Part shown: in pieces, positions 862-6,450 of the stretch
How positions within the stretch are numbered: position 1 is the first letter of the stretch
Layout: each line of letters opens with the position of its first letter
Assembly (NCBI GenBank): GCA_937942465.1
Contig: CALDEO010000007.1
Coordinates: 1-6,450 of the forward strand
DNA length: 6,450 bases
Direction of reading: 5' to 3'
Origin: an uncultured Saprospiraceae bacterium
GTDB lineage: Bacteria > Bacteroidota > Bacteroidia > Chitinophagales > Saprospiraceae
Translations under genes and position numbers: made by a program
Notes under the pieces: model-generated
What the model saw: only the letters and a program-made list of their open reading frames with translations
Database searches by the model: none
What the model was told of the DNA's origin: nothing

Positions 862-1161
862 ATGGATATTAAAATTGATAGAGGATTCAACGTTAGTGAA
901 GCAACTAACGGATTTGAAGCATACGCATTTGACAAAGTACAGAAGTACTTTGACCACTATACATTTCTACAATCAGTGCAAATATACCTACGAGGTCAGA
1001 AGCATCCCACCAAGAAAGTGAAGCTGCGGATGAACTTGAAAGGAAAAGAAATATTTTCGGAAGCTAAAGGTTATAAACACCATGATGCATTTGATAATGC
1101 GCTTACTAAAATGGCGGCTCAGCTAGCCAAACACAAATCTAAAAGATACTCTGCGGCTTAA
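862..1161 (+). CDS. hpf: Short ribosome hibernation-promoting factor (HPF/YfiA, sigma-54 modulation family)
   Basis: The 99-residue product is of the short HPF/YfiA class. These proteins bind the decoding channel of the 30S subunit and silence ribosomes in stationary phase or starvation. It shows the usual beta-alpha-beta-beta-beta-alpha order: an N-terminal strand (MDIKIDRGFNVSEA), a first helix (about 15-33), strands with VQIYLRG and KVKLRMNLKGKEIF, then a second helix with the family-like pattern DAFDNALTKMAAQLAKHKSKR (about 74-95). It has no C-terminal dimerisation domain of the long HPF type. ATG 862 is the first start after an in-frame TAA at 850-852 and follows an A-rich leader (AAACAAAATAT), as is common in Bacteroidota. 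It is monocistronic, with hairpins right after the stop. Its nearness to storage genes suits a starvation role, but shared control is not shown. Confidence 0.9.
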   Translation: MDIKIDRGFNVSEATNGFEAYAFDKVQKYFDHYTFLQSVQIYLRGQKHPTKKVKLRMNLKGKEIFSEAKGYKHHDAFDNALTKMAAQLAKHKSKRYSAA

Positions 1162-1496: not shown

Positions 1497-2021
1497 ATGT
1501 CAAACAAAAAAGATCAAACCGCATCATTCGTAGTACGTTTTACTCAGCAGATATTTGAGGATACTCAAGGACAATCTGATGTACAGTGGAAAGGAAAAAT
1601 ATCTCACGTACAGAGCGATGACGAAAAACGATTTACCGATGTGTCAGAGGCATTAAACTTTATGCAAGCAAGACTTGCCGATATGACGAAATCGTCAACT
1701 GAGCATGTAAGTAAGGATGAGCAGAAAGGCATCCTCAACAAGAGTCTAGGTATATGGAAGCGAGTATCCAAAGAGTACCCCAAGTTTGTAATGGATACAA
1801 TCAAAGACCCTAAAGCGCAAGTCGAGCATATACAAGGGCAAATACAAGAAGGATTGCATCAAGTAAGCGAAGGAATCAGCGAGAAACTAGAACTCAATGA
1901 ATGGCAACCTGCATCAAAAAGTGATTATAAAAACATGATGGAGATGATGACTACATTGACTACTCAAGTATCGGAGTTAAGTAAAAAGGTAGACACCATG
2001 TCCAAAAAGTCAAAAATATAA
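1497..2021 (+). CDS. Phasin-like protein with N-terminal W-x-G-x-I-x-H-V-Q-S module
   Basis: The 174-residue product is soluble, with no signal peptide or membrane segment. Residues 10-56 form a small module with SFVVRF, then W31-K-G-K-I-S-H-V-Q-S40, then RF46 and an EALNFM helix. I recognise this pattern from small uncharacterised bacterial proteins but know no function for it. Residues 80-130 are helical (SLGIWKRVSKEYPKFVMDTI, then a Gln/Glu-rich amphipathic stretch). Residues 136-168 start with W-Q-P-A-S-K-S-D-Y and continue as a leucine/methionine heptad coiled coil (MMEMMTTLTTQVSELSKKV). A 'W/P-x-S-K-S-D' segment followed by a short zipper is typical of the C-terminal oligomerisation region of PHA phasins. 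A role on the surface of a storage granule is therefore inferred, not shown. ATG 1497 is the natural start. The gene is coupled to the regulator that follows in the same frame. Confidence 0.7.
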   Translation: MSNKKDQTASFVVRFTQQIFEDTQGQSDVQWKGKISHVQSDDEKRFTDVSEALNFMQARLADMTKSSTEHVSKDEQKGILNKSLGIWKRVSKEYPKFVMDTIKDPKAQVEHIQGQIQEGLHQVSEGISEKLELNEWQPASKSDYKNMMEMMTTLTTQVSELSKKVDTMSKKSKI

Positions 2022-2024
2022 TCT

Positions 2025-2828
2025 TTGGCAACTACAACATCAAATATCGATGACTTAATTGCACTAGAATCTAGTGCCCAGCTTAGGTTCTATACCTTAG
2101 GTGGATTTGATACCTATGTTGTCGAGAAAGCCATAGATAATAAAGAATGGGGACGAGATAAGACGATACAGTTATTACAATTTATGATCACAAGTAGACA
2201 CCGACATGGACTTCATAAAGAACAGATCATAGATCGTATCTGGGAGGATGTAGATCAAAAATCAGGGGATAGAGATTTTAAAGTGGCATTGCATGGTATC
2301 AATAAGGTACTAGAACCGAATAGAGCCAGTCGTACAGACACTAAATATATTGTCAGATCAGGGCTCAGTTATCAATTGCAATCAGACAAAGTCTGGGTAG
2401 ATAGCAGCGCTTTTGAGGAGGCTATAATATTAGGCAACGACAATCTGCATAAATCGGATGACATCGCCCGAAAAGCATACAACTATGCAATACAACTATA
2501 CAAAGGTATCTATCTACCAAGCCGCGTATACATGGACTGGACAAGTGCCGAACGGGAGCGACTGCAGGTACTAGCACTCGGCACCTATATAGAGTTAGCT
2601 AAAGTAGAATTAGAGACGAATGCATTCGAATGTATAAGACTATGTCAAGCAGCATTGCAGATAGATCATGCATGGGAGGAGGCGTATACATTACAGATCA
2701 AAGCATACTTGTCGAGTGGCAATAGACCACAAGCAATAAAAACATATAAAACCTGTAAAGAGATACTATCAGATGAATATGGTCTCGATCCGCTGCCTAC
2801 AACAAAAGCTCTGATCAACAATATATAA
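2025..2828 (+). CDS. Winged-helix/BTAD (SARP-like) transcriptional regulator, TTG start
   Basis: The 267-residue product begins its DNA-binding domain at about residue 20 with LRFYTLGGFDTYVV, the usual first strand of an OmpR/SARP-type winged helix. The recognition region is near residues 50-95 (LLQFMITSR...KEQIIDRIWED...FKVALHGINKVLE). VWVDSSAFEEAI opens the bacterial transcriptional activator domain, a TPR-like helical domain that runs to the C-terminus (MDWTSAERERLQ; ALQIDHAWEEAYTLQIKAYLSSGNRPQAIKTYKTC; EYGLDP). It has no ATPase, receiver or sensor domain, so it resembles small SARPs. TTG 2025 is chosen because the next in-frame methionine (in QLLQFMITS) would cut into the winged helix. 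It lies 3 nt after the upstream TAA (2019-2021) in the same frame, so translation is probably coupled. The adjacent phasin promoter is a plausible target. Confidence 0.85.
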   Translation: MATTTSNIDDLIALESSAQLRFYTLGGFDTYVVEKAIDNKEWGRDKTIQLLQFMITSRHRHGLHKEQIIDRIWEDVDQKSGDRDFKVALHGINKVLEPNRASRTDTKYIVRSGLSYQLQSDKVWVDSSAFEEAIILGNDNLHKSDDIARKAYNYAIQLYKGIYLPSRVYMDWTSAERERLQVLALGTYIELAKVELETNAFECIRLCQAALQIDHAWEEAYTLQIKAYLSSGNRPQAIKTYKTCKEILSDEYGLDPLPTTKALINNI

Positions 2829-2971: not shown

Positions 2972-3808
2972 ATGGCAACAAAGACTCCAACATTAAAGAA
3001 ACTTGAAAATGCAAGATCATTCGTAATGAAGAATGCAAAGACTGCTCACAATACACTATTGAGTACTACAGAAGAGTTAATTGAAGGATCTATAGCTACA
3101 GCTGAAAAAGTACAGAAGCTTACTTCAAAAACGATCAAAAAAACTGAGCCTCTAGTTGAGAAGCAAGTAGATATCATGTTTGATGCAGCCGAAGAAGTAT
3201 TCGTACAAATGGATAAAGGGAGTGAGCGATTCCAGAAATTACTAGGAATCACTGACCAAGTAGCTAAAGTCAAAAAATATGTAAACAAGTCAGTAAAAAT
3301 GACTGGTAAGACTTTAGAAGAAAACTATGACTACGTAACTAAAAATGCTAAAGAAGTAGCGAATAAAGTTGAAGATAGAATAGAAGACCTAACTGCAACA
3401 GTAAAGAAAAATGCTAAAGCTACAGTAGCTAAAGTTGAAGATAAAATAGAAGACATCACCAAAACAGTGAAAACGTCATCTGCTAAAGCTGAGAAGAATG
3501 TAGTAAAGACTGCTACTAAAGCGAAAAAGCAAACTAAAACAACAGTAAAAGCTGTAAAGAAAACTACTAAGAAAGCTGTTGCTAAAGTAAAAGTAATCGC
3601 TGAAGTAACGCTAAACGATATCAAAGGTATCGGACCAAAAATGCAAGAAACATTGAAGACTGCAGGTATCAACAGCGTAGCTGATCTTGCTAATGCAAAT
3701 GCAAAAGAACTTAACGAAGTATTAGCAAATGCCAATCCTAGATACAAGAGTTTTGATCCAGCACCTTGGATTGCAGATGCAAAGGCAGCAATAGCAGCGA
3801 AGAAATAA
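2972..3808 (+). CDS. Phasin-like granule protein fused to H1-like Lys/Ala tail and helix-hairpin-helix domain
   Basis: The 278-residue protein has three parts. Residues 1-92 are a helical phasin-like domain with TTEEL, QKLTSKTIKK, KQVDIMFDAAEEV and GSERFQKLLG, closely matched by the product of the 3839 gene. Residues 93-212 are a long, highly charged helical and Lys/Ala/Thr-rich segment; it includes two 22-residue repeats (124-145, 146-167) and an H1-like basic tail (TKAKKQTKTTVKAVKKTTKK). Residues 214-278 are a helix-hairpin-helix domain (LNDIKGIGPKMQETLKTAGI, then ADLA, FDPAPWIADAK), a non-specific DNA-binding fold. The layout recalls Pseudomonas PhaF, a phasin with an H1-like tail that ties PHA granules to the nucleoid. 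An earlier in-frame ATG at 2891 would add 27 residues. I prefer 2972 because the paralogue also starts MATK and the predicted start site lies near 2950. Confidence 0.75.
   Translation: MATKTPTLKKLENARSFVMKNAKTAHNTLLSTTEELIEGSIATAEKVQKLTSKTIKKTEPLVEKQVDIMFDAAEEVFVQMDKGSERFQKLLGITDQVAKVKKYVNKSVKMTGKTLEENYDYVTKNAKEVANKVEDRIEDLTATVKKNAKATVAKVEDKIEDITKTVKTSSAKAEKNVVKTATKAKKQTKTTVKAVKKTTKKAVAKVKVIAEVTLNDIKGIGPKMQETLKTAGINSVADLANANAKELNEVLANANPRYKSFDPAPWIADAKAAIAAKK
3341..3472 (+). repeat. Two tandem 66-bp repeats inside the long phasin-like gene
   Basis: Copy 1 is 3341-3406 and copy 2 is 3407-3472. Both start AAAAATGCTAAAG and share AAAGTTGAAGAT and ATAGAAGAC blocks in register. Each encodes 22 residues of the pattern KNAKxxxxKVEDxIEDxTxTVK. 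Twenty-two residues is two 11-residue turns, the period of phasin-like and LEA-like amphipathic helices that lie on lipid surfaces. The copies differ at many codons, so the duplication is not recent, but its length could still vary between strains. Confidence 0.8.
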
Positions 3809-3838: not shown

Positions 3839-4129
3839 ATGGCAACTAAAAATGCTAAGACATCAAAAATGGATGTTACTAAGAACATAGAAAACATCAA
3901 GTCAATGACTAAAGATGTAAACAACTTTGTACTACAGACATCTGAAGAACTTGTAGATACAGCAATCGTACGAGGCGAACAATGGCAAAAAGTAAGCGCT
4001 AAAGCAATCAAAGGTGGATTGAAACTAGCAGCTACACAACAGGACATTATGTTCACAACACTAGAAGCTGTAAAAGGTCAATTAATGACTGGAACTAAGA
4101 GATTTCAAAAGTTATATAGTAAGAACTAA
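3839..4129 (+). CDS. Small phasin-like protein, paralogue of the N-terminal domain of the preceding gene product
   Basis: The 96-residue, all-helical, soluble product has no signal peptide. Residues 34-94 align without gaps to the first domain of the 2972 product: T-x-EEL, I, E, QK, K-x-IK, Q-x-DIMF, M-x-x-G-x-x-RFQKL are shared. It lacks the Lys/Ala tail and the helix-hairpin-helix domain, so it would be a coat protein without the DNA-binding part, much as PhaI is to PhaF in Pseudomonas (analogy, inference). The start MATK is shared with the preceding gene, which supports ATG 3839 over the internal ATG at codon 11. It lies 30 nt after the preceding stop, has an A-rich leader, and probably shares its transcript, ending at the 4211-4246 terminator. 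Confidence 0.75.
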   Translation: MATKNAKTSKMDVTKNIENIKSMTKDVNNFVLQTSEELVDTAIVRGEQWQKVSAKAIKGGLKLAATQQDIMFTTLEAVKGQLMTGTKRFQKLYSKN

Positions 4130-4443: not shown

Positions 4444-5229
4444 TTGACAGAACTTACACAAGATTCCTTAGATTATAAAAGGCCCCCATTATTTTGGGCT
4501 TTTACAGAAGCATATCGTGCTCTATTTGAGCTCGCTACGTATGTACCGTATAAGCTTATCAACCGATTGCCTAAAAATGGTGATTCACATCCCGTATTGA
4601 TCCTTCCTGGGTTTATGGCGACTGATTCATCTACGGTACCATTGAGGAGTTTCATACATAACCTAGGTTATAATGTTTATGGATGGGGAGCTGGTAGAAA
4701 CTATGCTAGCGAAGCATATCTAGAACTACTACAGGATAAGGTGGATCTCATATTTGATAAAAATCAAGAAAAAATAAGCCTTATCGGTTGGAGTCTAGGT
4801 GGAGTATTTGCCAGACAACTAGCGAAGTCTAGACCTAATAAAATAAGACAAGTAATCACACTTGGATCCCCATTTAAAGATGTCATCAACGCCAACAATG
4901 CCAAATGGATGTATGACTTCATCAATAGAGACAAAGAGACTCAAGTAGTCAATCAAAAACTCCTTGATGACTTACCTAACCCTGCCCCTGTGCCGACGAC
5001 AGCAATCTACTCTAAGCAAGACGGCGTCGTACCTTGGAAACTCTGTATGGAGCAAGAAGAGAATGCAATACACCAAAATGTGGAAGTACGCGGCAGTCAC
5101 TTGGGTCTAGGAGTCAACCCCACCGTATTACAAATAATAGCAGATAGACTGCAATACAAGGAAGAAAACTGGTGCCACTTCGAGCCAAGTAATTTAGTTG
5201 AAGATTTGTTATTCTACCCTTCATTATAA
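4444..5229 (+). CDS. Alpha/beta hydrolase (lipase/esterase-like), TTG start
   Basis: The 261-residue product is a serine hydrolase of the alpha/beta fold. HPVLILPGF (about 50-58) is the first core strand with the oxyanion-hole loop. GWSLGG (115-120) is the nucleophile elbow with Ser117. YSKQDGVVPW gives the acid Asp193, and GSHLGL the base His219. The segment GYNVYGWGAGRN is typical of lipase/esterase-like members. There is no signal peptide, so it should act in the cytoplasm, likely on a lipid ester. A nucleophile Ser, not Cys, argues against a PHA synthase. TTG 4444 is the only usable start, since an in-frame TAG lies at 4432-4434 and no ATG lies in between. It is probably co-transcribed with the WS/DGAT gene 52 nt downstream, which suggests lipolysis or acyl-chain supply for stored lipid. 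The substrate is not known. Confidence 0.85.
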   Translation: MTELTQDSLDYKRPPLFWAFTEAYRALFELATYVPYKLINRLPKNGDSHPVLILPGFMATDSSTVPLRSFIHNLGYNVYGWGAGRNYASEAYLELLQDKVDLIFDKNQEKISLIGWSLGGVFARQLAKSRPNKIRQVITLGSPFKDVINANNAKWMYDFINRDKETQVVNQKLLDDLPNPAPVPTTAIYSKQDGVVPWKLCMEQEENAIHQNVEVRGSHLGLGVNPTVLQIIADRLQYKEENWCHFEPSNLVEDLLFYPSL

Positions 5230-5281: not shown

Positions 5282-6450
5282 ATGTTTAAGACCATCCTAG
5301 ATCAACTCAAGACCGAAAATCTTCAATCCGTATCTGGAATGGATGCTACCTTTCTATATGCGGAGACAGAAACTAGTCCGATGCATGTCGGTAGTGTTGC
5401 CATTATAGAGGGTTCTCTTGAGTTTGAGACATTCAAAAAAACGATCGCATCTAGGATACATCAAGTACCTAAATTGCGTAAACGTCTGATGACGATCCCA
5501 TTCAGCATCGACTATCCTTACTGGGTAGATGATCCAAACTTTGATATTGACTTGCACATAGATCACGTAGCACTGCCTAAACCTGGAAGCTGGAAAGAGC
5601 TCAGAGCGATGGCTTCTAGGATATTCAGTGAGCCACTAGATCACTCTAGACCACTGTGGTCATTTACATTTGTAGAGGGGCTAGACAAGTTGTCACAAGT
5701 CAAGCCCGGCAGTATAGCCATAATCTCTAAGATACACCATGTTGCTATCGACGGCGTTGCAGGAGCTAGTCTGTTGCCTATATTGTTTGACATGTCTCCT
5801 ACTCCATCAAAGATTAAAGAACCGCCACCATACAAGCCACATCCGTTGCCTAATGAGCTTGCGCTAATAGCAAAGAGTAGTTTGAGTTTCGCAACGAAGC
5901 CATTGAAGTTTCCAAAACTTATAAAGAGCACGTTAGAAGCTACCGTAAAAGCAGGATTCCTGACTCGAGTTCAACATCTAGACTTACCTACAGGACCATT
6001 CACTGCGCCTAGTACTCCGCTCAACGGGATCATCTCTGCAAAGAGAAAATGGAACACATCTATATTATCGCTAAATAGAGTAAAGAACCTGCGTAAAATC
6101 ATGGGTACAACCCTCAATGATATCATACTCGCTATATGTGCCGGAGCACTGAGAAGGTATCTACTGGAGAAAGACAAACTACCAATAAAACCACTTGTGG
6201 CGATGGTACCTATATCTACAAGAAGTAAATCAGAATCCGCGAACTCCGGCAATCAATTGTCAGCCATGCTAGTACAACTAGCAACACATATAGAAGATCC
6301 TATCGAAAGACTAGAAGCAATCTACGAAAACACCATCAGAGGTAAAACTTACCAGGGGGCTATCGGCGCTAAATCACTTACCAATCTTGCAGAGGCAGTA
6401 CCATTTGGTGTTGCTAATCAAGCAGCTAGGTTCTACTCAAGATACAATCT
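5282..6450 (+). CDS. Wax ester synthase/diacylglycerol O-acyltransferase (WS/DGAT), 3' end outside window
   Basis: ATG 5282 opens a frame that is still open at the right edge, giving 389 visible codons; family members usually have about 450-530. The enzyme transfers an acyl group from acyl-CoA to a fatty alcohol (wax ester) or diacylglycerol (triacylglycerol). Motifs in order: MDATFLYAE and PMHVG near the N-terminus, RPLW (123-126), the catalytic HHxxxDG as H152-H-V-A-I-D-G158, TPLNG before a basic segment, and N279-D-I-I-L-A with the following GALRRYL, then PLVAMVPIS. The motif set is complete for the visible part and there is no frameshift. The family is best known in Actinobacteria and Gammaproteobacteria, so its presence in a Bacteroidota setting is worth noting. 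It probably shares the promoter at 4375-4408 with the hydrolase. Confidence 0.93.
   Translation, partial: MFKTILDQLKTENLQSVSGMDATFLYAETETSPMHVGSVAIIEGSLEFETFKKTIASRIHQVPKLRKRLMTIPFSIDYPYWVDDPNFDIDLHIDHVALPKPGSWKELRAMASRIFSEPLDHSRPLWSFTFVEGLDKLSQVKPGSIAIISKIHHVAIDGVAGASLLPILFDMSPTPSKIKEPPPYKPHPLPNELALIAKSSLSFATKPLKFPKLIKSTLEATVKAGFLTRVQHLDLPTGPFTAPSTPLNGIISAKRKWNTSILSLNRVKNLRKIMGTTLNDIILAICAGALRRYLLEKDKLPIKPLVAMVPISTRSKSESANSGNQLSAMLVQLATHIEDPIERLEAIYENTIRGKTYQGAIGAKSLTNLAEAVPFGVANQAARFYSRYN

What the first reader, a model, noticed from the sequence alone, without database searches (positions are those of the whole stretch)
2972..3808. Phasin / H1-like tail / helix-hairpin-helix fusion: a possible granule-to-nucleoid tether
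A phasin-like head, a Lys/Ala/Thr-rich basic linker and a helix-hairpin-helix domain in one protein match the plan of PhaF (phasin plus H1-like tail) and, functionally, of MLDS in Rhodococcus, which ties lipid droplets to DNA. The HhH end is, as far as I know, not part of the known tethers and would be a distinct solution to granule segregation or DNA protection.
Basis: partly seen in the sequence, partly recalled or inferred. Interest (0 to 1): 0.75.

Follow-up and report, generated by a model that had tools for sequence, protein, structure and literature searches.

The report
Oil-droplet-to-chromosome tether in Saprospiraceae
This gene sits in a cluster, shared by many relatives, with a predicted wax- or fat-making enzyme, and encodes a protein that is predicted to coat storage oil droplets with its helical front and likely holds the chromosome with its helix-hairpin-helix tail; a protein of this plan (PhaH) is already known from bioplastic granules, so the new part is the likely oil-droplet setting.

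Summary
The observation largely holds: 2972-3808 encodes 278 aa with a conserved head predicted helical, a mixed-charge middle, a short Lys/Ala/Thr stretch and a C-terminal helix-hairpin-helix (HhH) domain. Two parts of the interpretation change. First, HhH is not new for granule tethers: PhaH of Caulobacter is an HhH phasin (2023). Second, the likely cargo is neutral lipid, not PHA. The gene belongs to a cluster conserved in Saprospiraceae: p174 - BTAD - this protein - tail-less paralogue - alpha/beta hydrolase - WS/DGAT-SCP2. In 150 family genomes 31 of 34 head-domain carriers have WS/DGAT, against 14 of 116 others; PHA synthase shows no such link (2 of 34, 14 of 116). At the same place the tail is HhH in 19 of 37 relatives and a basic, Lys/Ala/Thr-rich tail without HhH in 18. 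Best reading: a droplet coat protein that ties oil droplets to the nucleoid, working like MLDS and PhaH but passing neither family's tests. Droplet and DNA binding are untested. Caution: the same HhH tail also caps bL27, S1, bS6 and a membrane subunit in this genome, so its target may not be DNA. New variant of a known kind.

The parts
2972..3808 (+). phasin1: 278-aa head / middle / HhH protein, the finding
2972..3247 (+). head, residues 1-92; predicted helical, low confidence; paralogous to the gene at 3839
   Evidence: paralogue (40% identity, 1.7e-9)
3248..3484 (+). middle, residues 93-171: mixed-charge, self-similar segment, sub-threshold apolipoprotein hit
3485..3592 (+). Lys/Ala/Thr-rich basic stretch, residues 172-207
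3602..3805 (+). HhH domain, residues 211-278, hairpin GIGPK
3839..4129 (+). phasin2: 96-aa head-only paralogue
1497..2021 (+). p174: conserved 174-aa protein, unknown family; cluster member
2025..2828 (+). BTAD-domain protein (PF03704 59.5 bits, cut-off 22.1), likely regulator; cluster member
4444..5229 (+). alpha/beta hydrolase (PF00561 32.9 bits, cut-off 25.8); cluster member
5282..6448 (+). WS/DGAT acyltransferase (TIGR02946 351.4 bits, cut-off 309.95), cut by the window end
   Evidence: in the congener 608 aa with SCP2

Best explanation
This is a protein, encoded next to a predicted wax ester/triacylglycerol synthase, that is predicted to coat neutral-lipid droplets with its helical head and likely ties them to the nucleoid through its basic stretch and helix-hairpin-helix tail. 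Shown: the domain plan, the conserved gene cluster and the co-occurrence of head domain and WS/DGAT. Inferred: that head and middle lie on the droplet's lipid monolayer, that the tail holds DNA without sequence preference, and that this spreads and segregates droplets and may shield DNA in starvation. The tail-less paralogue next door would be the plain coat protein; the p174/BTAD pair would adjust coat expression to droplet supply, as MLDSR does for MLDS.
For: WS/DGAT next door. Among the best 80 WS/DGAT-SCP2 loci of named genomes (of 569 relatives) a head gene is found in 41, within 4 kb in 37, two head genes in 38 (same strand, 23-108 bp apart in 38 of 38), the full order p174-BTAD-head-head-hydrolase-WS/DGAT in 19. 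In 150 family genomes head and WS/DGAT coincide in 31 of 34 carriers against 14 of 116 others; PhaC_N in 2 of 34 against 14 of 116. Class III PhaC over cut-off in 0 of 21 genomes picked for head genes near or linked to WS/DGAT, and in 6 of 6 comparison genomes (two of those six, G271 and G310, later proved head carriers). The tail exchange, 19 HhH and 18 basic tails in 37 loci with three changes on the tree, and two of 38 members hitting H1-like HC2, point to nucleic-acid holding. Invariant GxGPK in 28 of 28 aligned homologues. Working precedents: MLDS (PMC5504291, passages) and PhaH (PMC13052382, passages).
Against: No binding data. The head model is low in confidence and passes no phasin or apolipoprotein cut-off. 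The same HhH module caps bL27, S1, bS6, an NrfD-like membrane subunit and a membrane-anchored protein in this genome, and its second-look matches include NusA AR2 in complex with SuhB, a protein contact. The hairpin lysine is replaced in at least two HhH forms (L123, L144). One HhH form (L141) has no basic tail (linker -5, best 40 residues +3). Three of 34 head carriers lack a WS/DGAT match (G204, G244, G313) and two have PhaC. Ten of 80 loci with 6 kb or more on both sides have no head gene. The Fisher p (5.6e-18) is not corrected for kinship and takes as one set of 150.
Confidence: 0.55

Rival explanations
1. Droplet coat protein whose HhH tail does not hold the chromosome but binds RNA, ribosomes or a protein partner; the HhH is a shuffled general-purpose tail.
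For: The module also caps bL27, S1, bS6, an NrfD-like subunit and a membrane-anchored protein in this genome; NCBIfam models of NuoE, L21, S2 and valyl-tRNA synthetase match 19, 17, 11 and 6 of 38 relatives; NusA AR2, bound to SuhB, is among the structural matches; HhH net charge is small, -3 to +11 in 19 forms.
Against: In 18 of 37 loci the HhH is replaced by a strongly basic Lys/Ala/Thr-rich tail, which fits a nucleic-acid role better than a specific protein contact; PhaH uses an HhH for DNA.
Confidence: 0.25
2. A phasin of PHA granules, as in PhaF or PhaH.
For: Same plan; sub-threshold hits to PhaH (24.5 bits, cut-off 250), Phasin_2 and PHA_granule_1; two head carriers, G271 and G310, have a class III PhaC.
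Against: PhaC_N in 2 of 34 head carriers against 14 of 116 others; class III PhaC over cut-off in 0 of the 21 genomes first picked for head genes (in all 23 of the 34 carriers were tested, 2 over cut-off); none in the 99%-complete congener.
Confidence: 0.06
3. A general nucleoid or stress protein with long charged helices (histone-like), unrelated to droplets.
For: High Lys/Ala content, basic tails with H1-like hits in 2 of 38 relatives, low-confidence helical head.
Against: Paired with a tail-less head paralogue and with WS/DGAT in many genera; head domain found in 1 of 247 class genomes, the window's own.
Confidence: 0.1

Closest known systems
PhaH, HhH phasin of Caulobacter crescentus (Salinas et al. 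2023; seen only through review passages, PMC13052382)
   Same: Granule-binding N-terminal part and C-terminal HhH in one protein.
   Different: PHB granules there; here a WS/DGAT gene next door and no PhaC found. NF045508 is not passed (24.5 of 250 bits) and its match covers residues 115-272, not the head.
MLDS / MLDSR of Rhodococcus jostii (PMC5504291, abstract and passages)
   Same: TAG droplets; N-terminal droplet part, C-terminal DNA-binding part, regulator gene beside it.
   Different: DNA held by PAKKA motifs there, none here; regulator is an XRE-type HTH protein there, BTAD here; an extra HhH here. Sequence kinship with MLDS was not tested.
PhaF of Pseudomonas putida (PMC13052382, passages)
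   Same: Phasin plus histone-like tail; 18 of 37 relatives here end in such a tail without HhH.
   Different: PF05597 and TIGR01837 are not passed (12.4 of 28.8 and 11.4 of 94.7 bits); PHA granules there.
WS/DGAT-SCP2 enzymes of Bacteroidota (PMC10351704, passages)
   Same: The same enzyme type: 613 +/- 15 aa, SCP2 detected in two of the four sequences reported there, with a putative acyltransferase/hydrolase nearby.
   Different: In the passages seen no phasin or tether is named next to the Bacteroidota enzymes (one phasin is named on a Pseudomonadota scaffold).

Membership tests
PhaH (NF045508) | Score over the curated cut-off | tested here: not met
   24.5 bits, cut-off 250, residues 115-272; 19 of 38 relatives match at E<=0.01, best 6.9e-9
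PhaH (NF045508) | C-terminal HhH domain | tested here: met
   HHH_5 33.4 bits, cut-off 27
PhaH (NF045508) | PHB granules, so a PHA synthase in the cell | tested here: not met
   PhaC_N absent in the own genome (65% complete) and in G180; TIGR01836 over cut-off in neither
PhaH (NF045508) | Non-specific DNA binding and granule placement | not testable with these tools
   needs experiment
Phasins (PF09361, PF05597, TIGR01837, PF09602) | Score over the curated cut-off | tested here: not met
   Phasin_2 15.7 of 24.9, Phasin 12.4 of 28.8, PHA_granule_1 11.4 of 94.7; Phasin_2 at E<=0.01 in 2 of 38 relatives; PF09602 not among the window protein's hits and below cut-off in L040 and L067
MLDS | Apolipoprotein-type droplet-targeting part | tested here: inconclusive
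   ApoLp-III 27.2 of 36.3, Apolipoprotein 24.2 of 90 bits; Apolipoprotein at E<=0.01 in 7 of 38 relatives
MLDS | C-terminal PAKKA motifs | tested here: not met
   no PAKKA in the translation (by reading); motif from PMC5504291
MLDS | XRE-type HTH regulator (MLDSR) in the operon | tested here: not met
   the regulator-like neighbour is a BTAD protein
MLDS | Sequence kinship with MLDS | not tested
   no MLDS sequence was fetched
WS/DGAT (TIGR02946), neighbour gene | Score over cut-off and the HHxxxDG motif | tested here: met
   351.4 of 309.95 bits; HHVAIDG in the frame (motif consensus recalled)

The most novel reading that the evidence does not exclude
Saprospiraceae own an operon-encoded oil-droplet system in which a dedicated, so far unnamed coat-protein family ties wax/TAG droplets to the chromosome by an exchangeable tail (HhH in some lineages, H1-like in others), with a tail-less partner coat protein and a p174/BTAD pair that senses droplet surface and adjusts coat expression.
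Probability: 0.3. Interest if true: 0.68.

Novelty: new variant of a known kind. Interest (0 to 1): 0.52.

Why it matters
The papers seen place storage-body tethers in Pseudomonadota (PhaM, PhaF, PhaH, AlgP) and Actinomycetota (MLDS); this would add Bacteroidota and show the HhH tether design shared between plastic granules and oil droplets. The cluster would be a marker for oil storage in Saprospiraceae, in a phylum where such storage is called unexplored (PMC10351704). The near-even split between HhH and basic tails at one place makes a question directly testable: does a storage body need only some grip on nucleic acid, whatever its form?

Tried and rejected
PHA granule reading: tested by PhaC_N and class III PhaC searches and set low. 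HhH as a new tether part: dropped after PhaH. Tail-charge compensation (HhH-less tails median 28.5, linkers of HhH forms median 14, Mann-Whitney p 0.0019): only 2-3 independent pairs on the tree, so not claimed. Repeating the association in another family failed for lack of carriers: head domains in 1 of 247 class genomes, WS/DGAT in 2 of 396. Fold of the head: both models too uncertain, and no fold search was run on the second. Sequence search against PDB: best E 0.014, nothing at 0.001. Literature searches without anything on point; led to PMC10351704. Rows dropped before the tree: L178 (its long head protein looks like an N-extended phasin2), open-ended frames, and head proteins under 160 aa; still held L178.

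In one search the class III model was run on 27 genomes, 23 of the 34 head carriers among them; sub-threshold matches (28 bits or less) occur in 6 of the 21.

Full report

Neighbours. Upstream: an S30AE/HPF-like gene (862-1161), p174 (1497-2021) and a BTAD-domain protein (2025-2828). Downstream: a 96-aa head-only paralogue (3839-4129), an alpha/beta hydrolase (4444-5229) and a WS/DGAT acyltransferase (5282 on, TIGR02946 351.4 bits over 309.95). In the congener (L040) the WS/DGAT is 608 aa with a C-terminal SCP2 domain, a type already reported for Bacteroidota (PMC10351704, passages seen).

Conservation of the cluster. A scan of named genomes with a WS/DGAT-SCP2 alignment gave 569 relatives, the best 80 kept. 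Of these 80, 41 hold a head gene, 38 two, 46 p174 with BTAD, 46 the hydrolase, and 20 a head with HhH. The head gene lies within 4 kb of WS/DGAT in 37 of 80; the full collinear order occurs in 19 of the 41; the two head genes are on one strand with a gap of 23-108 bp in 38 of 38 pairs. Of the 39 loci without a head gene, 29 have under 6 kb of sequence on at least one side and 10 have 6 kb or more on both. A second layout puts the head genes, BTAD and p174 divergent from WS/DGAT.

Genome-level association. In 150 genomes of the family (80% complete or more, apart from the window's own), head domains occur in 34, WS/DGAT in 45 and PhaC_N in 16, 14 of them over the cut-off. Taking the three calls as one set, which their listed rows suggest but do not show in full, head and WS/DGAT coincide in 31 of 34 carriers against 14 of 116 non-carriers (Fisher 5.6e-18, kinship not corrected), and head and PhaC in 2 of 34 against 14 of 116. 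Exceptions: G204 (weak, 2.2e-7), G244 and G313 have a head without a WS/DGAT match; G271 and G310 have a head and PhaC. The class III PhaC model was run on 27 genomes: over the cut-off in 0 of the 21 picked for head genes and in 6 of 6 comparison genomes, two of which later proved to be head carriers. Outside the family head domains are rare: 1 of 247 class genomes, the window's own, though a Winogradskyella protein shares the plan (P0018, 26% identity, 4.8e-10).

The tail. Of 37 loci with a scorable phasin1, 19 have HhH and 18 end in a Lys/Ala/Thr/Arg-rich tail without it; on the WS/DGAT tree three changes suffice (quick tree, 12 of 34 inner branches starred). The most basic 40 residues of the tail have a median charge of +12 (HhH forms) and +15 (HhH-less), against a median of 5 and a 99th percentile of 12 for the most basic 40 residues of 516 other frames of the same loci; L141 is an exception at +3 (38 rows, L178 included). 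Two of 38 members hit the H1-like HC2 family. This exchange is the best sequence hint that the tail's job is to hold nucleic acid. The hairpin GxGPK is invariant in the 28 rows of A1, but the lysine is replaced in at least L123 and L144. Between L105 and L170 head and HhH are under purifying selection (dN/dS 0.02 and 0.05, dS near saturation).

The caution. The same linker-HhH module caps other proteins of this genome: ribosomal bL27 (L004), S1 (L006, partial frame) and bS6 (L007), an NrfD-like membrane subunit (L008) and a membrane-anchored double-HhH protein (L003). Pfam calls HHH_5 over its cut-off in L003 and L004; in L006, L007 and L008 the module was found by the phasin query and by reading the GxGPK motif. 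NCBIfam models of NuoE, L21, S2 and valyl-tRNA synthetase match 19, 17, 11 and 6 of 38 relatives. So the module moves between proteins, and its ligand cannot be read from its name.

Known precedents. PhaH of Caulobacter is an HhH phasin that binds granules by its N-terminal end and DNA by its C-terminal end (review PMC13052382, passages seen; primary paper not held). MLDS of Rhodococcus binds TAG droplets by its N-terminal part and DNA by C-terminal PAKKA motifs; its regulator MLDSR shares the operon and is sequestered by droplets (PMC5504291, abstract and passages seen). The protein here works like both by plan but passes the tested defining features of neither in full.

Judgement. A coat protein of neutral-lipid droplets is likely (about 0.75, my estimate); that the tail ties droplets to the nucleoid is the leading but unproven step (0.55 for the whole chain). 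It is a new variant of a known kind: known parts (HhH phasin, droplet-DNA tether, WS/DGAT-SCP2) in a combination and phylum for which my searches of the held open-access papers showed no report; these are listings, and subscription papers are mostly not held.

Noticed in passing
L004, L006, L007, L008, L003 (own genome, G000): A Lys/Ala- or Pro-rich linker plus HhH (GxGPK) caps ribosomal bL27, S1 and bS6, an NrfD-like membrane subunit and a membrane-anchored protein; such a shared tail on housekeeping proteins deserves its own study.
   Followed up: partly
window 1497-2828: p174 and the BTAD protein are 3 bp apart and travel together (both in 46 of 80 loci); p174 has a conserved N-terminal part (TASF..RF.Q, Q.W.G) of no known family.
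   Followed up: partly
window 862-1161: An S30AE/HPF-like ribosome hibernation gene lies upstream of the cluster; in the 80 named loci an HPF hit is seen in L105, L170 (same side) and L127 (other side) only.
   Followed up: no
L169, L180, L181, L184: WS/DGAT relatives (53-61% identity in the best segment) in records labelled Anaerolineales, Anaerolineae or Chloroflexi, without head genes in the held sequence: possible transfer or binning error.
   Followed up: no
L080 / L111 (same contig by length): One 732-aa frame hits both the hydrolase and WS/DGAT: a gene fusion or a sequencing frame effect.
   Followed up: no
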